Below are positions 14,056 through 33,899 of a stretch of DNA of 64,000 bases, in pieces (position 1 is the stretch's first letter; the number at the start of each line of letters is the position of its first letter). The stretch is from IMG/VR virus record IMGVR_UViG_3300028840_004475, positions 1,665-65,664 of that record; one strand, 5' to 3'. The stretch comes from a virus. The notes under the pieces were generated by a model that was given only the letters and a program-made list of their open reading frames with translations, had not been told where the DNA came from and did no database searches. The position numbers and the translations under genes were made by a program.

Positions 14056-14158
14056 CGACGCAACGCATCATAAAGTTGCAAGACGGTGATATCGCTATGA
14101 AATAAAAAGGCACCAATAGGCAACAATATGCGATAATAGGTGTGAAAGGGGAGAACAC
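14056..14158 (+). promoter_or_regulatory. Promoter region of the GHKL/metalloprotease block
   Basis: An AT-rich 100-nt gap with AGGCACCAATAGGCAA, then GCGATAATAGG (GATAAT -10-like, 14132) 27 nt before the ATG at 14159, and AAAGGGGAGAAC as ribosome site. CGATAAT matches the CGATACT cores of other promoter regions in this arm. Confidence 0.5.
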
Positions 14159-14428
14159 ATGAACGACACCTACTACGCGCCCTCCATCACGATCACTCTC
14201 GAGCTGGAGGACGGCACCGAGCGCGACCTCGAGTGCGAGTACTACGTCGAGGAAGAGGATCCCAGCGTCGGCATCTTTGGCACCGACATCCTGGTCGAGA
14301 ACGTCTACTGGGACGACGACCGCGACGCCGAGGTGCCCGACGAGATCTTCCCCGGCCGCGAGAAGGAGATCACCGAGCTGGCCACCGAGGCCCTCAAGGA
14401 AGCAGCAGACGCAGCGATGGAGCCATAG
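14159..14428 (+). CDS. Acidic hypothetical protein, 89 aa
   Basis: Short, highly acidic protein (Glu/Asp throughout, especially EYYVEEEDP and WDDDRD) with an alternating N-terminal strand (SITITLELEDG) and a helical C-terminus. It is the first gene of the block with the two GHKL/metalloprotease proteins and is separated from the next start by 9 nt. It could be a small partner or inhibitor of the following enzyme, but nothing in the sequence proves that. Confidence 0.75.
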   Translation: MNDTYYAPSITITLELEDGTERDLECEYYVEEEDPSVGIFGTDILVENVYWDDDRDAEVPDEIFPGREKEITELATEALKEAADAAMEP

Positions 14429-14437
14429 GAGGTCGCC

Positions 14438-15919
14438 ATGTCCTGGTTTGAAGTCGACCGCGAGGGACTCGCCAAGCTGATCGAGCGCAGGGGCAAAGCC
14501 TTCCTGCTCTACGAGCTGATCCAGAACGCCTGGGACACCGAGACCGGCAGCGTGCACGTCACGATCGAGCCCTACGACAACAAGCCGCAGGTCAGGCTCG
14601 TGGTCGAGGACGAGGACCCCAACGGGTTCGCCGACCTGAGCCACGCCTACACCCTCTTCGCCGAGTCAGTGAAGAAGGGCGACCCCACCAAGCGCGGGAG
14701 ATTCAATCTCGGCGAGAAGCTGGTGCTGGCGCTCTGCAACGAGGCAGAGATCAGCAGCACCAAGGGCACCGTCGTCTTCCACAAGGACGGCCGGCGCCAC
14801 ACCACCAGGCACAAGCGCGAGTCAGGCTCACAGTTCTGGGCCAAGGTGCGCATGACCCGCAAAGAGATGCACGACGTCATAGAGGCGCTGCACCTGCTGA
14901 TCCCGCCGGCACTCATCACCACCACGATCAACAACACAGAGCTGCCAGTGCGCAGCCCCGTCGGCGAGTTTCGCACGGGACTGCAGACAGTGATCTCCGA
15001 CGACGAGGGCAACCTCAAGCGCACCACACGCCAGACCGACGTCGAGGTCTACGAGCCCGAGCCCGGCGAGGTCGGCACCATCTACGAAATGGGGATCCCG
15101 GTGGTCGAGACAGGCGACCGCTGGCACGTCAACGTGCTGCAGAAAGTGCCGGTCAACATGGACCGGGACAACGTGCCGCCAAGCTACCTGCGCACGCTGC
15201 GGGCCCACACCCTCAACGCCATGCACCAGCGCCTGACCACAGACGACGCAGTGCAGCAGTGGGTGGGCGATGCCCTCGAGCACCCGGAGGTCGACGAGCA
15301 GGCAGTCTCCGACGCCCTCACCGCCCGCTACGGTGAGAACAAGGCGATCTACGACCCGAGCGACCCCGAGGCCAACAACAAGCTGGCGTCAGAGGGCTAC
15401 ACCCTGATCCACGGCGGTGCCTTCAGCCGTGACGCTTGGGAGAACATCAAGCGCACAGAAGCCGCTGTGCCGGCCGGGAAGATCCGGCCCACCCCCAAGC
15501 CCTACTCCGACGACCCAAGCGCACCACAGGTCAAGCTGGTGCCCGAGAGCGAGTGGTCACCGGGGATGCACCAGGTAGTGGCGCTGGCCAAGCGGCTGGG
15601 TGACGAGCTGCTGGGGCGCCACGACCTGCAAGTGCGCATCGTCGACACCAGCAACGCCTTCGCTGCAGCCTACGGCCGCGGCTGCCTCGACCTCAACCTG
15701 CGGTCCCTGGGGCGCTCCTGGTTCCACCTCTGGCAGTCGCACCTCGACCAGGTGCTGGACGTGCTCCTGCACGAGTTTGCCCACGAGTACGAATCCAACC
15801 ACCTGAGCGAGGCCTACTACAACGCCATCAGCAAGCTGGGCGGTGAGCTGGCGTTCCTCGCCCTGCGAGCGCCTAGCGTGTTCGACGCCGACACCAGTCT
15901 GCCAGGAGGTGAGTCGTGA
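14438..15919 (+). CDS. GHKL-type ATPase domain joined to an HExxH metalloprotease motif
   Basis: A 493-residue protein. Residues 26 to 33 (ELIQNAWD) match the GHKL N-box (Mg-ATP site), and 87 to 94 (GRFNLGEK) match the G2 lid. The G1 box (about 57 to 63) lacks the usual D-x-G-x-G but keeps a D-x-x-G. The middle region resembles a second-domain linker of MutL/Hsp90/MORC-like proteins. Residues 445 to 455 (HEFAHEYESNH) are a zinc-protease motif with metzincin-like HExxHx5H spacing. The ATG at 14438 has AGGAGGTC. Its TGA overlaps the GTG of the next gene. A similar two-part protein is encoded at 17071. Target and function are unknown. Confidence 0.82.
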   Translation: MSWFEVDREGLAKLIERRGKAFLLYELIQNAWDTETGSVHVTIEPYDNKPQVRLVVEDEDPNGFADLSHAYTLFAESVKKGDPTKRGRFNLGEKLVLALCNEAEISSTKGTVVFHKDGRRHTTRHKRESGSQFWAKVRMTRKEMHDVIEALHLLIPPALITTTINNTELPVRSPVGEFRTGLQTVISDDEGNLKRTTRQTDVEVYEPEPGEVGTIYEMGIPVVETGDRWHVNVLQKVPVNMDRDNVPPSYLRTLRAHTLNAMHQRLTTDDAVQQWVGDALEHPEVDEQAVSDALTARYGENKAIYDPSDPEANNKLASEGYTLIHGGAFSRDAWENIKRTEAAVPAGKIRPTPKPYSDDPSAPQVKLVPESEWSPGMHQVVALAKRLGDELLGRHDLQVRIVDTSNAFAAAYGRGCLDLNLRSLGRSWFHLWQSHLDQVLDVLLHEFAHEYESNHLSEAYYNAISKLGGELAFLALRAPSVFDADTSLPGGES

Positions 15920-16578
15920 GCGCAGAAGTCTACGACCTGCCGGTGGAGAACCGACAGCGCAAGCCAGTGACCCTGCGATTCGGAGCCCGCACCGTCGCCG
16001 GCCCCACCGCCTACCCGTTGGGCCTGCTGCCGCTGGTGCGCGCCTTCTACGCAATCGACGGCGCCAAGGTGGTGGGACAGAAGCACAACTGCAACCTGAT
16101 CCCACCGTGGGAGCGCACCCGGGCCGCCATCCAGGTGACCCAGCACAACGAGGCGCACCGTGGTGACATCGTGTGCATGCGCCTGCAGCACGGCAGCGTG
16201 GCCGAGGTCGACCTCGAGGTGGCCGGCGTCCGAGCTTTCAGCAGGAAGGGGCAGAAGGGAGTCGCCACCATCAGCCTGGGTGGCTGGGTGGCCGACGACA
16301 TGCGCGACGCCTACCGGGCATCGATCGCGATCTGCCGAGCACTGGTGCTGACCGGTGCCGACGCGCCCACGATCTGGCGTGACATCGAGAAGACGCTGGT
16401 GCACCAGCTCGACGAGGTCGAGGCCGAGTGGGACGAGATGATCATGCACAGCTACCAGGGTGCGGCCGAGCCCCTCCCCGAGCCCGACAACGTCTACCAC
16501 GACGCACCTGAGTATGAGCCCCAGGACAGCGTCAGCACCTCGGCACCGTGCCCGCTCGCCTACCAGTACGTGGACTAG
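15916..16578 (+). CDS. Hypothetical protein, 220 aa
   Basis: Unrecognised. The GTG start at 15916 overlaps the previous stop (GTGA) and has AGGAGGTGA upstream. The N-terminal ~165 residues are a mixed alpha/beta domain (PLGLLPLVRAFYAI, GDIVCMRL, VATISLGGW). The last ~60 are Pro/Glu/Asp-rich and probably disordered. Strict coupling to the GHKL/metalloprotease gene suggests that the two products work together, perhaps as substrate, adaptor or regulator. Confidence 0.78.
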   Translation: MSAEVYDLPVENRQRKPVTLRFGARTVAGPTAYPLGLLPLVRAFYAIDGAKVVGQKHNCNLIPPWERTRAAIQVTQHNEAHRGDIVCMRLQHGSVAEVDLEVAGVRAFSRKGQKGVATISLGGWVADDMRDAYRASIAICRALVLTGADAPTIWRDIEKTLVHQLDEVEAEWDEMIMHSYQGAAEPLPEPDNVYHDAPEYEPQDSVSTSAPCPLAYQYVD

Positions 16579-16587
16579 GAGGACGCC

Positions 16588-16884
16588 GTGTACAACCCCA
16601 TCCTCGACCGCCGCCCCCAGGACCAGCTGCTGGTCTGCTTCGTCAACCGCTTTGACGAGATCGTGGGCTACGTCTCGCAGAACAACCTGTACACCAAGCG
16701 CATCGGTCGGGCGTGTATCGTCGACGGTTCCGTCTACGGCGCCGCCTCCATCCTGAAGCAGCTGATGCGCTGCGGCAGCATCCTGCTGGCGTGGCCGCCC
16801 TCGGTCTGGAGAAGGGATGGCACCATACGAACCTCCGCAGGAAGACGATCACATTCTACGTGGATGATCTGCTCGACTTCCTAA
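16588..16884 (+). CDS. Small gene interrupted by an apparent -1 frameshift
   Basis: The frame starts at GTG 16588 (AGGAGGAC upstream) and reads as a normal protein to about residue 72 (SILLAW), then becomes a nonsense-like Arg/Ser/Thr tail ending at 16884. The other frame continues sensibly over about 16790 to 16916, with ALGLEKGWHHTN and TFYVDDLLDF, ending at TGA 16914. One extra G in GGCGTGG (about 16788) would join them as LLAVAALGLEKGW, giving ~109 residues. Sequencing error, mutation or programmed shifting are all possible. Confidence 0.55.
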   Translation: MYNPILDRRPQDQLLVCFVNRFDEIVGYVSQNNLYTKRIGRACIVDGSVYGAASILKQLMRCGSILLAWPPSVWRRDGTIRTSAGRRSHSTWMICSTS

Positions 16885-17012
16885 ACAAAGACGATCCTGA
16901 GAATAAAAACGGCTGATCACAGATTCATTCTCGATTCGCGAATTGGAAATAACTAGAAGATACGGACAGTTTCGGTGGTCGCTAGAAAAGTGCTAGAGAA
17001 TAAAAAAAGGTA

Positions 17013-17042
17013 TTTACAAAATAAAACAAGGTTTGCTATTCT
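17013..17042 (+). promoter_or_regulatory. Putative sigma-70-like promoter for the gene at 17071
   Basis: TTTACA (17013) and TATTCT (17037) are separated by 18 nt in an AT-rich 150-nt gap, followed by AAGGGGAGAAC and the ATG at 17071. The second GHKL/metalloprotease gene therefore has its own promoter. Confidence 0.55.
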
Positions 17043-17070
17043 TAGGGCTCAACAGCAAGGGGAGAACCAG

Positions 17071-18414
17071 ATGAAGAAGCGCACCACCATCGAGCTGACC
17101 ATCAATCCCGACTACGTCCGCAACTGGGGCGTGTGGGAGGGGATCCGCGAGCTGATCCAGAACGCCAAGGACGCAGACGACATCGGCTGCGAGATGAAGG
17201 TCGAGTACGTCACGAACACGCAGCAGCCCATGCTGCGCGTCACCACCACCGGCACCACCCTCGACCGCAGCCACCTCCTGCTGGGCACCACCACCAAGGC
17301 CGGGCGCGACGACCAGCGCGGCGAGTTTGGCGAGGGCCTGAAGCTGGCCATGCTGGTCCTGAGCCGGGCCGGCTACACCGTGCGCTGCCGCTCCGGCGAG
17401 GAGCAGTGGATACCCAAGGTCGACCACTCCGACACCTTCGACAGCGACCTGCTCATGGTCAGCTGCAGCCCGGTCACCTACAGGGAGCAGATCCAGATCG
17501 ACGTCATCGGCCTGAGCGCCAACGACTGGGAGAGCATCCGGGAGCGGTGCCTGTTCCTGGCCGACAAGCGGAAGAAGAAGGAAGCGATCGAGGTCGGCCT
17601 CAACCAGATCCTGACCGGCGACGACGACGTGGGCCTGCTCTACGTCAAGGGTATCTTCGTCGGCAAGCTGCCCGGCCGTCACTTCTACGGCTACAACCTC
17701 TGGAACGTGCGCGTGGACCGCGACCGGCGCCTGGCCGACCCATGGGACCTCAAGTACGAGATCGCCCGCGTGATCAACAAGGCCGTCGAGCGCGACCTGA
17801 TCAAGATCGAGGACGCCTACAACCTCATGATGGAGGATGGATTCGAGGAGAGCCAGGCCGTGGCGCAGATGGGCCACACCACCACCGAGGTCAGCGCCAA
17901 GCTGGTCGAGCACTTCGAGGAGACCCACGGCGAGAACGCAGTCGCCGTCAAGGACACTGCTCAGAGCGCCGAGGCTGCCCACTACGGCATGAAAGGCGTG
18001 GCAGTCGGTGAGAACCTCAAGACCGCCATCGAGCGCGTCAAGGGCGACTACGAGAGCCGCAAGAGCAGCATCGCCACCGACACCAAGGCCACCTACTCCT
18101 TCGACGACCTCAACGAAGACGAGGCCCTGGGGTTCATGTTCGCCATGGAGATCGCAGAGAAGACCGGCGAGAAGGCCAGCCTGGACGTCGTCGACTTCTA
18201 CGGCGAGGGTGTTCTGGCCACTTTCCAGGAGGCGACCGAGCCCGGCGACGAGGCCCGGGTGCGCATCGCTCGCAAGATCCTGACCGACCGTCGCCAGGTG
18301 GTCATTGCCGTCGTGCACGAGCTGGCCCACTACTACGGCCGCGACGGCACCGTCGACCACCGGGATGCCTGCGACCGGATCTTCGCCGACCTGCTGGTCA
18401 GCGTCATCGACTAA
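17071..18414 (+). CDS. Second GHKL-type ATPase with C-terminal HExxH motif
   Basis: A 447-residue protein. Residues 27 to 34 (ELIQNAKD) form a textbook GHKL N-box, and 83 to 91 (RGEFGEGLK) a clear G2 lid. The expected G1 aspartate is not evident (VTTTGTTLD). Residues 416 to 420 (HELAH) with His430 further on (TVDH) make a zinc-protease-like site at the extreme C-terminus. The layout matches the protein at 14438, but the two are highly diverged. ATG 17071 is chosen over an upstream in-frame start because of the promoter and the AAGGGGAGAAC site. Leader element copy 9 follows the stop. Confidence 0.83.
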   Translation: MKKRTTIELTINPDYVRNWGVWEGIRELIQNAKDADDIGCEMKVEYVTNTQQPMLRVTTTGTTLDRSHLLLGTTTKAGRDDQRGEFGEGLKLAMLVLSRAGYTVRCRSGEEQWIPKVDHSDTFDSDLLMVSCSPVTYREQIQIDVIGLSANDWESIRERCLFLADKRKKKEAIEVGLNQILTGDDDVGLLYVKGIFVGKLPGRHFYGYNLWNVRVDRDRRLADPWDLKYEIARVINKAVERDLIKIEDAYNLMMEDGFEESQAVAQMGHTTTEVSAKLVEHFEETHGENAVAVKDTAQSAEAAHYGMKGVAVGENLKTAIERVKGDYESRKSSIATDTKATYSFDDLNEDEALGFMFAMEIAEKTGEKASLDVVDFYGEGVLATFQEATEPGDEARVRIARKILTDRRQVVIAVVHELAHYYGRDGTVDHRDACDRIFADLLVSVID

Positions 18415-18457: not shown

Positions 18458-19423
18458 ATGGCACACGAGATCATGGCAAACGACAACATGATGTATGTCG
18501 GCAAGCGACCCTGGCACGGCCTCGGCACTGAGGTGCTCGGGGCAGCGACGGCCCACGAAGCCCTGCTGGCGGCCGACCTCAACTGGGAGGTCGAGAAGCG
18601 CGACCTCTTCACCACCGACGCCCGCAGCGTCATCCAGGTGCCGAGCCACAAGGCCATCGTCAGGGTCGACACCAACGAGCCCCTGGGCGTGGCCACCAGC
18701 CGCTACCACTGCATCCAGAACGAGGAGCAGTTCGCCCTCATGGACGCCGTCGTTGGCAGCAAAGAAGCCAAATACCACACCGCCGGCAGCCTGCAGAATG
18801 GGCGCCTGGTGTGGATGCTCGCCCAGCTCAATGAGACACTCAACATCGCCGGCAAGGATGCGGTCGAGCAGTATCTGCTCCTGCACGCCCGGCACGACGG
18901 CACCGGCTCCGTCGCCTTCCTCTACACCCCGGTCAGGGTGGTCTGCGCCAACACGCTGCAGGCGGCCCTGCAGAACGCCAAGGTGGCCTTCCGCATCCGG
19001 CACACCTCCGGGTACAAGGCCAAGATCCAGGAGGCCAGAGAGGCCCTGGGGTTCGCTCACAAGTACTTCGACGCCTTCGCCGAGGCCGCCGAGCGCATGG
19101 CCAAGGCACCCTTCACCCAAGTGCAGATGGAGGCCCTGGCCGCCGGCCTGTTCCCGAGCAAGATCGTGGACGGTGAAGAGGTGACCAGCACCAAGGCCAA
19201 GAACAGCCGCGACAAGATGCTGGAGCTGTACGAGGACGGCGCCGGCATCGCTCCCTTCCGGGGCACGGCCTGGGCCGCCTTCAACGCCGTGGCCGAGTAC
19301 ACTGACCACCACCGCACTGCTCGAGGTGGCGACGAGGGCCGGCTGGCCAGCGTCTGGTTCGGTTCGAGTGCCACTATGAAGCAGCGCGCATTCGGCATGA
19401 TCGAGGCCCAGCTTACAGCGTAA
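18458..19423 (+). CDS. DUF932 phage/plasmid-like protein, 321 aa
   Basis: The N-terminus (MYVGKRPWHGLG) and the order of conserved blocks (YHCIQNEEQFALMDAV, GRLVWMLAQL, VRVVCANTL) match the DUF932 / phage-plasmid-like family often found next to phage accessory and replication genes. No biochemical activity is established for the family. The length (~320) is typical. Start ATG 18458 has AGAGGAGGACG. It is followed by a 108-nt gap with inverted repeats, so the transcript may end there. Confidence 0.88.
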   Translation: MAHEIMANDNMMYVGKRPWHGLGTEVLGAATAHEALLAADLNWEVEKRDLFTTDARSVIQVPSHKAIVRVDTNEPLGVATSRYHCIQNEEQFALMDAVVGSKEAKYHTAGSLQNGRLVWMLAQLNETLNIAGKDAVEQYLLLHARHDGTGSVAFLYTPVRVVCANTLQAALQNAKVAFRIRHTSGYKAKIQEAREALGFAHKYFDAFAEAAERMAKAPFTQVQMEALAAGLFPSKIVDGEEVTSTKAKNSRDKMLELYEDGAGIAPFRGTAWAAFNAVAEYTDHHRTARGGDEGRLASVWFGSSATMKQRAFGMIEAQLTA

Positions 19424-29028: not shown

Positions 29029-32000
29029 CTAGCTGCACCCGCTAGTGTCGCCACACCCAGCACACTTGAAACAGGTTCCACTGCGCACCATAATGGAGCC
29101 GCACCGCAAACAGGGCGGCGCATCCGATGCCATAGCATCAGCTGGTTCCTCATTCTCCATGGTGTCTGCCACCAAGGCCCCACCTACGGCGCCTTCCCCT
29201 ACATCGAAGTCCTTCACGTACCTCATGGCCAAATACCTGAAGATGTAGTCGGGGATGCTCTTGACGAGCTTGATGTTCTGGTTGTCAGTGAATCCAGAAG
29301 GCTCGAATCTGACGTGCGCGAACTTCTCGATATACGATGTGAGAGGAACACCGTGCTGCAAGCCGAGTGACACAGAGATGCCCAGGCAATCGAACAGACC
29401 TCTCAGTGTAGAGCCAGACTTGGAAGCGGTGATGAAGATCTCACCAACGCTGCCGTCAGGGTAGAGACCAGTAACCAAGAAGAACTTGTGGCCGGCGATC
29501 GTGAAACCATGCGTCTTCGCATCCCTCTCGCTTGGCAACTTCCTCTTCTTACCTATCTCCACGGCCGGTACCACAACCTGCTGCTTCACGGTCTGCAATG
29601 GCTGTGACACCTTCGACCTGTCCCTGTAGATGGTCATCGCTTTGACACCCATCTTCCAGGCATTGATCAGCAACCTGTCGATCTCATCCGCCGTCGTACT
29701 CTCTGGCAAGTTGATGGTCTTGGAGATCCCACCAGAGATGTGAGGCTGTATGGCCTCGAGCATCTTGACATGACCCATGGGTGCGATGGTACGTGCATCG
29801 GCGCCGCCGCTGCCGAATGCACAGTCAAAGATCGACACGTGCTTGCTGTTCAACTGCTCGCACCCATCCACGGTTCCGTACTTGTCGATGTGCTCTGCAA
29901 TAGCCTCCCTATCCTCATCTTTGTACCCTAGATTCTCGAGTGCGTTCAGCACACTGTTGTTGACGATAGTGATCGCACCGCCGCCAACCATGCTCTTCGT
30001 CTTGATGAGAGACAGCTCAGGTTCTGCACCTGTGGTGTCGCAGTCCATGAAGAAACCGATGGTACCCGTGGGCGCCAGCACGCTCGCCTTGGAGTTTCTG
30101 TAGCCGTACTTCTTCCCGAGGATAGTGGCCTTCCTCCATACTGCCGCGCAGACCCTCTTGAGCAGATCGAATTGTTCGATGCGCTTGTTGTGACGCACCA
30201 GGTTGTCGCCAAGAGTCTCAGCGCTAGCCTTGTGTAGACCAATGACAGACAGCAGCGACTGCTTGTTGTCTTCGTACTTTGCGAACGGCCCCTTGACCCT
30301 GGCGATCTCTGCACTGGTGGAGTAGACGGTACCGGTGAGCATCGAAGCGACACAGCCGGCGAGCGTTCTTCCTTCTGAAGAGTCATACGGATAGCCGCAG
30401 TACATCAACAGAGCACCTAGATTGGCAAAGCCACACCCAAGCTGACGATGGTCAAGAGCATTCGCGGCGATCTTCTCAGTCGGGTACTTGGCCATGCCGA
30501 CGAGGATCTCTTGGGCGATGGTCGCGATCCTCACAGCCTTCCTGAACGTCTCGTGATCGAACACCCACTTGCCATTGACATGGCTCACGAACCTGATGAG
30601 GTTGAAAGAGCCGAGGTTGCACGCCGAATCGTCGATATCCAAGTACTCGCCGCAATTGTGGACGACAATGCCGCCAGCACCACCACAATGCTCAGTTCCA
30701 TTGTCGGCATCGAGCACCGCGAAATCGTAGACATGGTGCTCACCGTATGGTTCGACAGCCTTTACATACGTCTTGTTGTAAAGCTTCGATGCGCTGTCTC
30801 CATCAACACAGTTATGCAGCTTTTCAGTTTTGCTGCTCTGAACAAAACCAATGTGCGATGCGAACCTTTTCAGATAAGCATTAGATACTGTGACATTGTA
30901 TGACTCACGACATTCGTAGACGCCGTTATCAAATTCAACACTTGTGGCCCTATTGGTTCCGATGTTTGACCTGATTCCAAGCATGGCCAAACACTGCACA
31001 ACCTGCTGTGCCAAAAGCTTACTAGATGTCTTCAGCTGCACTTTGTTGTACTTCTCTAGAACAGAACCATTCGCAGAGAATAATCCTCTCAAAAAAGAAG
31101 CAACAACATAGGAGCCAGCCTCTAAGATGCACTGACTAATTGACCGCTCGTATGTTCTCCCACCTATGGAATGTGCATCCCACAAAGAACCGTACAGTCT
31201 TGACGATATAGAATGTTTGTCATCTATAATGTCATGACAATCTCGAAAAGTTTTCTTGAACAACTCACCGACTTCATCATCATCGCCATCTGTGCGTAGA
31301 TAAATCCTAGCTGGATGAATCGTTGAACCGCCATTCCAAAGTACCTGTTTTCTATTCGGCGTCCCATCACCGAGCCCATACCCAAGCAGTACTGCCTCAT
31401 TCTCAGTCAGACCAATATCTTTTCCAGTGAAAATAATATTATTCAAAGACAGGCGAACGGTAGCGCCTTGCATGCCGGCAGCTGAATGAAAAACACCACA
31501 GAATTCTTCTCCTATGACACCTTTTTTGCTGATATCGCCATCGCTTGCCAAACGATGGTCAGATGTAACGATAAGCTCGAGACCATTGGACAATGTGACC
31601 TTGACGGTACTTTTTCTACCACTATAAATACCCTTCGCGCGCTGGTAACAATCGCCAGTAGAACTGACAATTTCAAATTCCTTATCAGCCAAATCCCGAA
31701 TTGGAATCAGACCCTTTGACGTCTGAATCAAAGTGTCGCCATGCAGACATGGATTGCTAGCACGGATCTCACCGGAGTTCGGAATGGTGTTGTACTTGTT
31801 GATGTTGTCGCTGTACAGGATACCAGGATCGCCACAGTAGTGGATTGCCTCTGCCATCTCGCGCAGGATCTCTCGAGCCTTCACGGACTCCTTGTGGCTG
31901 CCGTTCTTCAAGTAGTAGAGGTCCCAATCACCGTCTTCCTCAACGGCCCGCATGAAAGCTGCGTTGACGCGCACACTATGGTTCTCATTCTGAAAGGCCA

Positions 32001-32790
32001 CAGAAGAGTAGGCACCGTTCTCGTCGTCGAATGAATCACTGTAGCCAGCCATCTTCAGGGCTCTGGCCTTCTCCTCTTCGACGAGCTTGCTCCTGATGAA
32101 GTACCTCACGTCCGGGTGCGACACGTCCAGGATCACCATCTTCGCCGCACGTCTGGTCTTACCGCCGCTCTTGATGACACCAGCAGAAGCGTCGAGGCCC
32201 TTCATGAACGAGACTGGACCGCTGGCCAGGCCGCCCCCAGACAGGCGCTCATCACGCCCGCGCAGCCTCGAGAAGTTGGTACCAGTACCGGAACCGTTCT
32301 TGAAAATCCTACCCTCGTTGACTGCGAGCTGCAGGATGGAATCCATATCGTCTTCAACGCTCTGGATGAAACAAGCAGACACCTGTGGCGTCTCATCGAT
32401 ACCCACGTTGAAGTAGACCGGAGAGTTGAAAGAGTAGTACTGGTGGAAGATGAGCCACTTCAGGTCGAGAGAGAAAGAGTAGGCAGACTCCTCATCGAAG
32501 TAGCCCTCCGTCAGACCGTGCTCCGTTATCGTGTTGACCACACGCGCAGCAAGCTGCTTGAGGCTGTGCTCGCGCTCCGCAGTACCTCCGATACCCTTGA
32601 AGTACTTGTCCGCTGTGATGGACACAGCAGTGTCTGACCAGAACCGAGGGAACTCAACGTCTCTCTGTTCAAAGATAGACTTGCCGTCGACGTTCTTGAT
32701 GACAGCGTCACGTTTGATCCACTCTATCTCCGTCTCCAAGTCTTCTTCACTGGAGACGAAATACGGCGCTATCTTGATCGTGTTGGTCAT
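29029..32790 (-). CDS. nrdJ: B12-dependent (class II) ribonucleotide reductase with intein
   Basis: It reduces ribonucleotides to deoxyribonucleotides using adenosylcobalamin. Class II (NrdJ/NrdZ-type) blocks are present: SACFIQS, GSGTGTNFSRLR, SGGGLASGPVSFM and KSGGKTRRAAKM. After the intein come NPCGE (the Asn-Cys-Glu active site) and APTGTIGFFMDCDTTG, and a C-terminal redox/zinc tail (CLRCG ... CAGCG ... GCS) completes the protein. The full frame is ~1,253 residues; removing the 365-residue intein leaves ~888. ATG 32790 or GTG 32796, the latter overlapping the SbcD stop. No small subunit or activase is needed for class II. Confidence 0.95.
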   Translation of the reverse strand: MTNTIKIAPYFVSSEEDLETEIEWIKRDAVIKNVDGKSIFEQRDVEFPRFWSDTAVSITADKYFKGIGGTAEREHSLKQLAARVVNTITEHGLTEGYFDEESAYSFSLDLKWLIFHQYYSFNSPVYFNVGIDETPQVSACFIQSVEDDMDSILQLAVNEGRIFKNGSGTGTNFSRLRGRDERLSGGGLASGPVSFMKGLDASAGVIKSGGKTRRAAKMVILDVSHPDVRYFIRSKLVEEEKARALKMAGYSDSFDDENGAYSSVAFQNENHSVRVNAAFMRAVEEDGDWDLYYLKNGSHKESVKAREILREMAEAIHYCGDPGILYSDNINKYNTIPNSGEIRASNPCLHGDTLIQTSKGLIPIRDLADKEFEIVSSTGDCYQRAKGIYSGRKSTVKVTLSNGLELIVTSDHRLASDGDISKKGVIGEEFCGVFHSAAGMQGATVRLSLNNIIFTGKDIGLTENEAVLLGYGLGDGTPNRKQVLWNGGSTIHPARIYLRTDGDDDEVGELFKKTFRDCHDIIDDKHSISSRLYGSLWDAHSIGGRTYERSISQCILEAGSYVVASFLRGLFSANGSVLEKYNKVQLKTSSKLLAQQVVQCLAMLGIRSNIGTNRATSVEFDNGVYECRESYNVTVSNAYLKRFASHIGFVQSSKTEKLHNCVDGDSASKLYNKTYVKAVEPYGEHHVYDFAVLDADNGTEHCGGAGGIVVHNCGEYLDIDDSACNLGSFNLIRFVSHVNGKWVFDHETFRKAVRIATIAQEILVGMAKYPTEKIAANALDHRQLGCGFANLGALLMYCGYPYDSSEGRTLAGCVASMLTGTVYSTSAEIARVKGPFAKYEDNKQSLLSVIGLHKASAETLGDNLVRHNKRIEQFDLLKRVCAAVWRKATILGKKYGYRNSKASVLAPTGTIGFFMDCDTTGAEPELSLIKTKSMVGGGAITIVNNSVLNALENLGYKDEDREAIAEHIDKYGTVDGCEQLNSKHVSIFDCAFGSGGADARTIAPMGHVKMLEAIQPHISGGISKTINLPESTTADEIDRLLINAWKMGVKAMTIYRDRSKVSQPLQTVKQQVVVPAVEIGKKRKLPSERDAKTHGFTIAGHKFFLVTGLYPDGSVGEIFITASKSGSTLRGLFDCLGISVSLGLQHGVPLTSYIEKFAHVRFEPSGFTDNQNIKLVKSIPDYIFRYLAMRYVKDFDVGEGAVGGALVADTMENEEPADAMASDAPPCLRCGSIMVRSGTCFKCAGCGDTSGCS
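30655..31749 (-). other. Intein (365 aa) with LAGLIDADG-type endonuclease inside the reductase
   Basis: It starts with Cys (CLHGDTLIQT) and ends GGIVVHN followed by Cys, the standard splice-junction residues (block A Cys, block G His-Asn, +1 Cys). A block B-like TSDHRLAS is visible. Two LAGLIDADG-like helices are present, LLGYGLGDG and FLRGLFSANG. The second has Asn in place of the usual acidic residue, so cleavage may be impaired. The +1 Cys is the cysteine of NPCGE, so the host enzyme is inactive until splicing occurs. Confidence 0.93.
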
Positions 32791-32792
32791 TC

Positions 32793-33899
32793 TCACTGCC
32801 TCGTGTAGGAGATGCCGGCGTGCACAAGTCTCTCTGAATCAACATCTTCAGATGGATTCGCACCGACATACTTGCTGATCATTTCCTCGATGGCACTGGT
32901 AGGATTGATACCAGACGCCTTCCTCTTGGACTTCTTGTCTATCCATCTAGGCACGACACGCATCGCACCATTTTCCTTCAACGACTTGATGTGGCCGTCG
33001 ATGTCCACGCTAGACCGTGCAGACGCACTGCCTTTCAGGCGCACGATAACGACCGCCTTCTTCAGCTTCTTCTTGTAGTCAGCTGGGCGCTCCAGGACAG
33101 ACGGCATCTTACCGTCGAGATCCCACTCTAGATCGTAGAACCTTGGGCCTGGCAACGCGTGGAATTCGTGGCCTGCGCTGGTGTCATCGAAGATCTGGTA
33201 GCCCTTGCGCTGTCCCTTGTCTCTCAGACTGACCTGCATCGGCGAACCGCAATACCAGATGTTGTCAGCAATTGTCTGATACCTATGAAAGTCACCGAAT
33301 ACGACGTGGTCGAAGTACTTGGACGCCTCCAGCACTGCGTCCATCTTGATGCCTTCATTGGATGAGGTACCGGTATCGAACAGGGCGCCGCTGATTGGAC
33401 CGTGCGCCACCAGGACAGACGTCCTGCTCTTCTTGATGGAGCCTATGAAATCCTTGGCGATACTTGCGAACGAGTCAGTGATGTCCGCAACCGCTGGAAT
33501 GCAATAGAAGTCATACGGGCTGCGCTCTATCTTCTGTGGAGTAGTGACGATGTGCACGTTGTCTGGTACAAAGTGCTCCCAGTGCGAGATGACTCCGATG
33601 TTGCTGTTCCTTGCATCGAACCCATGGTTGCCCTCGAGCAGCAGGACAAACTCGATGTCTGCCATCCCTGCAACGGCCCTGGACGAGTAGTACAGTGTGT
33701 TGTTGTCAGGGGTGCGACTGTCCAAGAGGTCGCCAGCAACTACTAAGTAGCCCTTCAGGGCGATGATGTGAGCTATCAGCTTCTTGAGTAGAAGACACTT
33801 CAGCTTCAGGAAGTTGCTGACGCCTGCCTTATCGTATTCAGCATACGGATCGTCATTGCTGAGATGCCAGTCGGCACTTGTGATAACAGGAGCCGCCAT
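32793..33899 (-). CDS. SbcD/Mre11-like nuclease (T4 gp47 type)
   Basis: A 368-residue metallophosphoesterase. SADWHLSN (Asp10, His12), GDLLD (56 to 60), EGNHG (89 to 93) and a later VAHGP are the conserved metal-binding motifs. It should form the nuclease half of a complex with the SbcC-like ATPase at 26163 and trim DNA ends. The two genes are separated by the reductase, exonuclease and sigma-region-4 genes, unlike the usual adjacent pair. The start is ATG 33899. The TGA stop overlaps the reductase GTG. Confidence 0.93.
   Translation of the reverse strand: MAAPVITSADWHLSNDDPYAEYDKAGVSNFLKLKCLLLKKLIAHIIALKGYLVVAGDLLDSRTPDNNTLYYSSRAVAGMADIEFVLLLEGNHGFDARNSNIGVISHWEHFVPDNVHIVTTPQKIERSPYDFYCIPAVADITDSFASIAKDFIGSIKKSRTSVLVAHGPISGALFDTGTSSNEGIKMDAVLEASKYFDHVVFGDFHRYQTIADNIWYCGSPMQVSLRDKGQRKGYQIFDDTSAGHEFHALPGPRFYDLEWDLDGKMPSVLERPADYKKKLKKAVVIVRLKGSASARSSVDIDGHIKSLKENGAMRVVPRWIDKKSKRKASGINPTSAIEEMISKYVGANPSEDVDSERLVHAGISYTRQ

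What the first reader, a model, noticed from the sequence alone, without database searches (positions are those of the whole stretch)
14159..18414. Two GHKL-ATPase/metalloprotease fusion proteins in one accessory block
The genes at 14438 and 17071 share an unusual layout: an N-terminal GHKL-type ATP-binding fold (N-boxes ELIQNAWD and ELIQNAKD, G2 lids GRFNLGEK and GEFGEGLK) and a C-terminal zinc-protease motif (HEFAHEYESNH and HELAH with a later VDH). Seen directly: both motifs in both proteins, an atypical or absent G1 box, tight coupling of 14438 with an unknown gene (15916), and separate promoters. Known: GHKL domains occur in Hsp90, MutL, topoisomerases and MORC/paraMORC proteins, the last often in DNA-conflict systems. 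Inference: an ATP-gated protease pair that could act on host or phage proteins, for defence, anti-defence or takeover.
Basis: partly seen in the sequence, partly recalled or inferred. Interest (0 to 1): 0.75.

Follow-up and report, generated by a model that had tools for sequence, protein, structure and literature searches.

The report
Phage ATPases fused to zinc proteases
A large phage genome carries two related genes for a protein that joins an Hsp90-like ATP-binding clamp to a zinc-protease domain, a combination kept in many environmental phages, which may be a kind of ATP-controlled protein-cutting machine not described before.

Summary
The genes at 14438 (493 aa, "B") and 17071 (447 aa, "E") both encode a GHKL ATPase module followed by a C-terminal HExxH metalloprotease-like domain. 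Relatives of each occur in large environmental virus contigs: 45 of 45 full-length viral B homologues keep HExxH plus a third His; 38 of 43 long-form E homologues keep HExxH-DG-H; 0 of 37 short E forms have HExxH. In a 48-row alignment of the B C-terminal domain the only four invariant columns are those H, E, H, H. B and E profiles match over the whole length and over the protease domain alone: one architecture, two branches. AlphaFold models match Hsp90/TRAP1 N-plus-middle domains; the B zinc spacing equals that of Wss1. The seven cultured-phage relatives of E that I read lack the protease. Best reading: an ATP-gated, Hsp90/MORC-type clamp controlling a WLM/SprT-like protease, used by phages as an accessory effector. 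Activity, gating, substrate and role (counter-defence, takeover, or stripping proteins from DNA) are inferred, not shown.

The parts
14159..14428 (+). Small acidic ORF (89 aa) just upstream of B, with an AGGGGAGAAC leader at 14147; probably co-transcribed (inference); not conserved beside homologues
14438..15919 (+). Gene B (493 aa): GHKL ATPase, S5-like transducer, Hsp90-like middle region, C-terminal zincin
14513..14536 (+). B N-box ELIQNAWD; E26, L27, N30, D33 invariant in 32 rows (role of E26 as general base and N30 in Mg-ATP binding is recalled from GHKL enzymes)
14696..14719 (+). B G2 lid GRFNLGEK (G87, R88, G92, K94 invariant in 32 rows)
15770..15802 (+). B zincin motif HEFAHEYESNH (H445, E446, H449, H455), HExxHx5H
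15916..16578 (+). ORF C (220 aa) overlapping the B stop codon by GTGA; no Pfam, PHROG or PADLOC match; not conserved beside homologues
17071..18414 (+). Gene E (447 aa): GHKL ATPase, transducer, middle region, C-terminal zincin; residues 5-323 match phrog_6077
17149..17172 (+). E N-box ELIQNAKD (E27, N31, D34 invariant in 35 rows)
17320..17343 (+). E G2 lid GEFGEGLK (G84, G87, E88, G89 invariant in 35 rows)
18316..18360 (+). E zincin motif HELAH...DGTVDH (H416, E417, H420; D425; H430)
18458..19423 (+). DUF932 / TIGR03299 protein next to E; the neighbour that recurs most often (8 of 34 long-form E loci)

Best explanation
B and E are two distant branches of one phage-associated protein family. 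In each, an Hsp90/MORC-type GHKL ATPase with its transducer and a small middle region forms (by analogy) an ATP-gated dimeric clamp, and a C-terminal minigluzincin-like zinc protease of WLM/SprT kind sits where Hsp90 has its C-terminal domain. ATP binding would close the clamp round a protein, or a protein on DNA, and present it to the zinc site; hydrolysis would release it. The phage makes it as an accessory protein in infection, most likely to cut host proteins (counter-defence or takeover). Shown: both modules, their conservation, homology of the two branches, predicted fold. Inferred: dimerisation, ATP gating, zinc binding, proteolysis, substrates and role. The rivals below overlap with this one in part, so the odds need not add to 1.
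For: GHKL: HATPase_c_3 at E<=0.05 in 27 of 32 B-alignment members (best 8e-12) and 9 of 35 E-alignment members; NCBIfam sacsin-type ATP-binding domain in 8 of 8 B/E relatives scanned, below its cut-off; N-box Glu and Asn invariant in 32 and 35 rows. Fold: mean pLDDT 87.2 (B) and 92.5 (E); Foldseek best hits Hsp90/TRAP1 at 1e-11 (B) and 3e-8 (E), for E also MORC3/4 and MutL; VIA-align TRAP1 Z 15.2, 302 aligned, rmsd 6.7 (B) and Z 11.5, 292 aligned, rmsd 6.2 (E). Protease: the only invariant columns among 48 rows are H, E, H, H; C-terminal profiles find mainly zinc proteases in the PDB, Wss1, WLM protease 5jig and proabylysin for both (E 0.009-0.85); WLM 0.005 for B, SprT-like in 6 of 35 E members. 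B spacing HExxHx5H equals Wss1 His115/Glu116/His119/His125 (PMC5557861, passages). Homology of the branches: hhalign 7e-17 overall, 2e-9 for the protease domain alone. Phage setting: IMG/VR contigs up to 529 kb; sporadic in bacteria, 3 of 299 and 2 of 299 genomes of two families, starting genomes included, one copy on an integrase-bearing stretch.
Against: No direct test of ATPase, metal or protease activity. Pfam scores of the two window proteins are below the gathering cut-offs. Zincin matches to solved structures are weak one by one and may rest mostly on HExxH. The protease domain was not folded alone, and the metal site could not be measured; the lid region of the B model is poorly predicted (pLDDT about 50-70 at residues 61-90). 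The G1 Asp is not conserved in E. 5 of 43 long E homologues lost HExxH and short forms lack the domain, so the GHKL part must do something without it. No conserved partner gene points to a role. The Hsp90 C-terminal dimerisation domain has no clear counterpart.
Confidence: 0.55

Rival explanations
1. A DNA-clamp protease: the GHKL part encircles DNA as in MutL, topoisomerase or MORC, and the WLM/SprT-like domain removes proteins bound or crosslinked to phage DNA, as SPRTN and Wss1 do in eukaryotes.
For: E model also matches MORC3/4 and MutL; B matches MutL and topoisomerase ATPase domains at Z about 14-15 over some 230-260 residues; the C-terminal profiles list Wss1 and a WLM protease; Wss1 is activated by DNA binding and clears chromatin-bound proteins (PMC4559962, abstract and passages); an SNF2 helicase occurs in the window and near some homologues.
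Against: The best TRAP1 rows align about 300 residues, the MutL/gyrase/topoisomerase rows about 210-260, though Z is tied. No separate DNA-binding domain was found in the Pfam scans. SNF2 helicases are common in phages (recalled).
Confidence: 0.25
2. An rIIA-type protein: the GHKL core does the main work (exclusion or other counter-defence) and the C-terminal domain is one of many modules, here a protease, sometimes absent.
For: PMC7824862 describes rIIA orthologues as GHKL plus highly variable C-terminal domain (passages); BFVD fold matches of B include several RIIA proteins; one short-form phage protein is annotated RIIA; short forms lack the protease.
Against: T4 rIIA (one sequence, so a weak test) matches only in the GHKL region, hhalign probability 18%, E 0.0014. 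The long form of E is one side of one branch and the B protease is kept in 45 of 45 full-length viral members, unlike a freely swapped module.
Confidence: 0.3
3. A virion maturation protease with an ATP-dependent chaperone part, acting in capsid or tail assembly.
For: A zincin and a chaperone-metallopeptidase pair are proposed for virion maturation and assembly in jumbo phages (PMC7824862, passages).
Against: In the part of the window that was scanned the neighbours are not structural genes, and the recurrent neighbours listed are not recognisably structural (most were not scanned for families). B and E are patchy among the records searched.
Confidence: 0.1
4. A bacterial anti-phage defence protein carried by mobile elements and taken up by phages to fight competitors.
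For: B homologues in 27 loci of bacterial and archaeal assemblies; one sits near integrase, SIR2-like and HerA-like genes.
Against: 22 of those 27 records are titled MAG, where viral contigs can be misbinned; one of the others has dUTPase and DUF5131 genes among the proteins scanned; occurrence is sporadic; no strong PADLOC model.
Confidence: 0.1

Closest known systems
phrog_6077 and the short phage GHKL proteins related to E
   Same: E matches phrog_6077 over residues 5-323 at 3e-61; 112 phage records hold a relative
   Different: The 7 cultured-phage proteins read have 357-398 aa and no HExxH (these 7 were not themselves scanned against PHROGs); E carries about 110 further residues with a zincin motif
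Hsp90 / TRAP1 / HtpG
   Same: Predicted N plus middle domain fold, best rows about 300 residues aligned
   Different: 12-13% identity; C-terminal dimerisation domain replaced by a protease-like domain
MORC, MutL and topoisomerase GHKL ATPases
   Same: GHKL plus S5-type transducer; MORC3/4 and MutL among Foldseek hits for E
   Different: No CW, endonuclease or Toprim domain seen; a zincin instead
Phage T4 rIIA
   Same: N-terminal GHKL domain plus another C-terminal domain
   Different: Only the GHKL stretch matches, probability 18% with a single T4 sequence
Wss1 / WLM, SPRTN / SprT and minigluzincins
   Same: HExxHx5H spacing of B equals Wss1; weak WLM and SprT-like Pfam hits
   Different: WLM hit of B below the gathering score; fused to a GHKL ATPase; SUMO, ubiquitin or Cdc48 motifs were not looked for
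AAA+ zinc protease FtsH (recalled, not tested)
   Same: An ATPase and an HExxH protease in one chain
   Different: Unrelated ATPase superfamily; analogy only

Membership tests
GHKL (Bergerat) ATPase superfamily | N-box with Glu/Asn, G2 glycine lid, Bergerat fold | tested here: met
   Invariant E/N and lid residues; HATPase hits; fold matches
GHKL (Bergerat) ATPase superfamily | G1 box DxGxG | tested here: inconclusive
   B has a D-x4-G variant; E mostly N-x-G without a conserved Asp
Hsp90 family | N, middle and C-terminal dimerisation domains | tested here: inconclusive
   N plus middle-like match; rows that run past about residue 350 do so at rmsd about 8-17
Zincin metallopeptidases | HExxH plus third ligand, on an active-site helix | tested here: met
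   45 of 45 full-length B and 38 of 43 long E; HExxH inside helices 436-450 (B) and 407-421 (E) of the models
Zincin metallopeptidases | Bound zinc and proteolysis | not testable with these tools
   needs the bench
WLM / Wss1 proteases | Pfam WLM above gathering score | tested here: not met
   B 17.4 bits against cut-off 26
WLM / Wss1 proteases | Zinc ligands spaced HExxHx5H | tested here: met
   window B and 38 of 45 full-length viral B; 7 of 45 have x4; Wss1 ligands from PMC5557861 passages
SprT-like proteases | Pfam SprT-like above gathering score | tested here: inconclusive
   6 of 35 E members at E<=0.05, best 0.0034; the window protein not among the listed hits; bit scores of the six not shown
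phrog_6077 | Profile match over most of the family length | tested here: met
   E 208 bits, profile positions 2-315 of 366
T4 rIIA | Homology beyond the GHKL domain | tested here: inconclusive
   hhalign with a single T4 sequence covers only 75 (E) and 147 (B) columns; fold matches to RIIA proteins at high rmsd
MORC / paraMORC | MORC-type GHKL-S5 pair with its accessory domains, in conflict operons | tested here: inconclusive
   MORC fold matches listed for E; no conserved operon
DNA-protein crosslink proteases | DNA-dependent proteolysis | not testable with these tools
   needs the bench

The most novel reading that the evidence does not exclude
This is the first GHKL-powered ATP-dependent protease: an Hsp90-type clamp whose C-terminal domain was replaced by a minigluzincin, spread in two divergent copies among large phages to destroy chosen host or defence proteins.
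Probability: 0.35. Interest if true: 0.85.

Novelty: new variant of a known kind. Interest (0 to 1): 0.62.

Why it matters
As far as I recall, the well-known ATP-dependent proteases are built on AAA+ motors. A protease run by a GHKL clamp would be a different design, and its conservation in large phages would give a concrete handle on what rIIA-like GHKL proteins do. The catalytic residues of both halves are pinned down by the alignments, so ATP gating and substrate choice can be tested with single point mutants and a substrate trap.

Tried and rejected
Single-sequence scans of viral contigs with B or E found no relative, nor did a single-sequence scan of genome contigs; alignment queries did. 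Fixed operon partner: none found; ORFs 14159 and 15916 do not recur among the clusters listed. Stand-alone zincin beside short-form E genes, as a split version: 8 of 702 neighbouring called genes have HExxH, scattered in position; not followed further. Joint tree of B and E to decide gain or loss of the protease: short-form E is not one side of a branch, and the test of one clade did not finish, so gain versus loss is unresolved. Shared promoter before the AGGGGAGAAC leaders: no conserved upstream motif seen. PADLOC: only weak TmtA hits in the GHKL region. Full-length profiles against PDB sequences: no hit at 0.01 for B; for E MORC4 0.019, then HtpG and MORC2 at 0.07-0.08. Proximity of B and E in seven records: Fisher p 0.0009, and 0.003 without the window and a near-duplicate record, under uniform placement and chosen after seeing the data; only 6 of 36 E records and 0 of 21 other B records carry both, so they are not an obligate pair. 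The 50 rows that VIA-align shows for each model name no zinc protease; the GHKL part fills these lists, so this is no evidence either way. Pfam on one more element (L152) gave regulators and sigma factors but no clear sign of what it is.
Full report
What is there. The window lies at 1665-65664 of a 147,747-base virus record. The genes scanned on its minus strand are phage replication and nucleotide genes (SbcC- and SbcD-like, UvsX-like, DNA polymerase exonuclease, primase, DnaB-like helicase and loader, ribonucleotide reductase). B and E lie in a plus-strand block with few recognisable genes. B (14438-15919) follows a small ORF at 14159 with an AGGAGG site between, and overlaps the ORF at 15916 by GTGA. 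E begins most likely at 17071.

Finding relatives. In 50,697 phage records B has one relative, a 485-kb uncultured phage, 51.5% identical; E has 112, none covering 80% of E in one place. The seven E relatives that I read have 357-398 aa and no HExxH. Alignment-based scans of IMG/VR gave 52 loci for B and 204 for E, of which the best 80 were kept. L055 has nearly the length of LR745208 and is probably the same phage. One alignment scan of bacterial and archaeal genomes with B gave 27 loci, 22 of them titled MAG.

Conservation. Of 52 viral B loci, 45 are full length (425 aa or more, not cut) and all 45 have HExxH with a third His after 5 (38) or 4 (7) residues; the 7 others are four short forms of 370-380 aa and three cut or tiny ORFs. 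Of the 27 loci from genome contigs, 25 have HExxH; L167 has none and L168 is cut at the contig end. Of the 80 E loci, 43 are long and 37 short; 38 of 43 long ones have HExxH-DG-H and 0 of 37 short ones have HExxH. The five long ones without it are L071, L091, L094, L097 and L110; L071 and L091 show EExxH in its place. Thinned at 90% identity, 28 of 31 B (the other three are short forms) and 30 of 34 long E have HExxH. In the B C-terminal alignment (48 rows: the window, 28 viral and 19 genome rows; the short forms, near-copies and 8 of the 27 genome loci were not put in) the only invariant columns are H, E, H, H. In the E C-terminal alignment (32 rows; L091, L097 and L110 left out) F39, E80 and H83 are invariant, and H79, D88, G89 and H93, with four other columns, are at least 90%.

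One architecture. Profile-profile comparison of the B and E families gives E 7e-17 over 388 columns, probability 98.8, and of the C-terminal domains alone E 2e-9, probability 96, with the HExxH columns aligned. When 22 B-bearing records, the window's included, were searched with the E profile, one hit (E 6.6e-4, positions 350-434) fell on the C-terminal part of a B protein, and others on B GHKL parts. So B and E are distant relatives with the same layout. On a tree of 73 E-family rows built from the part before the protease, the long forms are one side of one branch (SH-aLRT 98). Whether the short forms lost the protease or never had it is unresolved.

Fold. AlphaFold models have mean pLDDT 87.2 (B) and 92.5 (E); the lid region of B is poor. 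Foldseek puts Hsp90 and TRAP1 first for both; MORC3, MORC4 and MutL also appear for E. VIA-align gives TRAP1 Z 15.2 with 302 aligned at rmsd 6.7 for B, and Z 11.5 with 292 aligned at rmsd 6.2 for E; MutL, gyrase and topoisomerase rows have tied Z but about 210-260 aligned residues. In B the HExxH lies in helix 436-450 with H455 just after it; in E it lies in helix 407-421 with H430 near the start of the next helix; three strands precede in each. In the viral structure library the best match to B is a 399-aa protein with TM 0.81 on the target, and several RIIA proteins follow. I could not measure the metal site.

Protease kind. B hits Pfam WLM at 0.005 over the motif, below the gathering score; 3 of 32 B members hit WLM and 6 of 35 E members SprT-like, at the 0.05 level. 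Against solved structures the B domain profile lists myroilysin (three chains), 5jig (WLM), proabylysin, Wss1 and two aminopeptidase rows, 8 of 10 rows, E 0.009-0.85, with Vps54 and AhpD as the others; the E domain profile lists a zincin-like protease, Wss1, 5jig, proabylysin and three snake-venom-type proteases, 7 of 8 rows, E 0.019-0.84, with a virus P4 protein as the other. These are weak one by one, and HExxH alone may drive them. The spacing of B equals that of yeast Wss1, whose zinc ligands are His115, His119 and His125 with Glu116 (PMC5557861, passages read); the same passages call proabylysin inactive. Wss1 and SPRTN are described as minigluzincins (PMC4559962, abstract and passages).

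Setting. No gene recurs as a regular partner. DUF932, next to E in the window, is in 8 of 34 long-form loci, 3 B loci and 1 short-form locus; SNF2 helicases are in 4 B, 5 short-form and 1 long-form loci. B occurs in 6 of 36 E-bearing records at gaps of 1.2 to 16 kb, and in the window at 1.2 kb; no full-length E was found in 21 other B records. Only 36 of the 43 long E loci and 21 of the 52 viral B loci were given to those searches. Two more loci hold both: a Phycisphaerae MAG contig (L145), and L095, where B is cut. In bacteria B is rare: 3 of 299 genomes of one family and 2 of 299 of another, the starting genomes included, and the two of the second family share an identical stretch. One copy (L178) lies near a phage integrase, SIR2-like and HerA-like genes and next to an SNF2 helicase.

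How it probably works. By analogy with Hsp90, MutL and MORC (established knowledge of these families, recalled), ATP would dimerise the N-terminal domains and close a clamp. The invariant N-box Glu favours ATP hydrolysis over mere binding. The zinc protease at the far end would cut what the clamp holds. Whether the client is a free protein or a protein on DNA is open; the longer Hsp90 alignment slightly favours the former. Use by the phage in counter-defence or takeover rests on setting and on the rIIA analogy alone (PMC7824862, passages read; the same passages mention stand-alone SprT-like peptidases in jumbo phages).

Novelty. Nine full-text searches touched this subject or its neighbours. 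Those pairing GHKL, HATPase or Bergerat with zincin, HExxH, SprT, WLM or metalloprotease listed nothing that I recognise as describing the fusion; one search matched 1,312 papers of which 20 were listed, and another 18 of which 10 were listed. Listings only were read, apart from the passages named above. Preprints are not held and most subscription papers are missing. Each half belongs to a known superfamily; I found no description of the two in one chain.

Noticed in passing
window 11626, 14147, 17058, 20990 (+); near-copies 6953, 9539, 21841 (+) and 36695 (-): An AGGGGAGAAC ribosome-binding leader stands just before several start codons of the plus-strand block (some starts judged by eye), those of the B and E units included; 8 matches with up to one mismatch against 3.6 expected, reached by 4 of 100 shuffles.
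   Followed up: partly
window 29029-32796 (-): A 1255-aa ribonucleotide reductase large subunit, longer than the PHROG profile stretch it matches; possibly holds an intein or other insert.
   Followed up: no
window about 22000: G+C falls from 0.60-0.70 to 0.47-0.60, and the main coding strand switches from plus to minus.
   Followed up: no
L178 3030-6316: HerA-like and SIR2-like genes, a pair that recalls the SIR2-HerA defence system (recalled), on an integrase-bearing stretch with a B homologue.
   Followed up: partly
L088 5430-5792: A small ORF of about 120 aa just upstream of a long E gene that weakly matches both protease-domain profiles, E 0.005 and 0.013.
   Followed up: no
L047, L049, L050: Short B homologues end in a CPxC-type tail in place of the protease; L050 has a textbook DNGEGF G1 box.
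   Followed up: no
L071, L091, L094, L097, L110: Long E homologues with degraded or absent HExxH, perhaps pseudoenzymes.
   Followed up: no
L179 and L180: Two different genomes share 19,767 bases at 100% identity round a B homologue, so a recent mobile element or a contamination.
   Followed up: no
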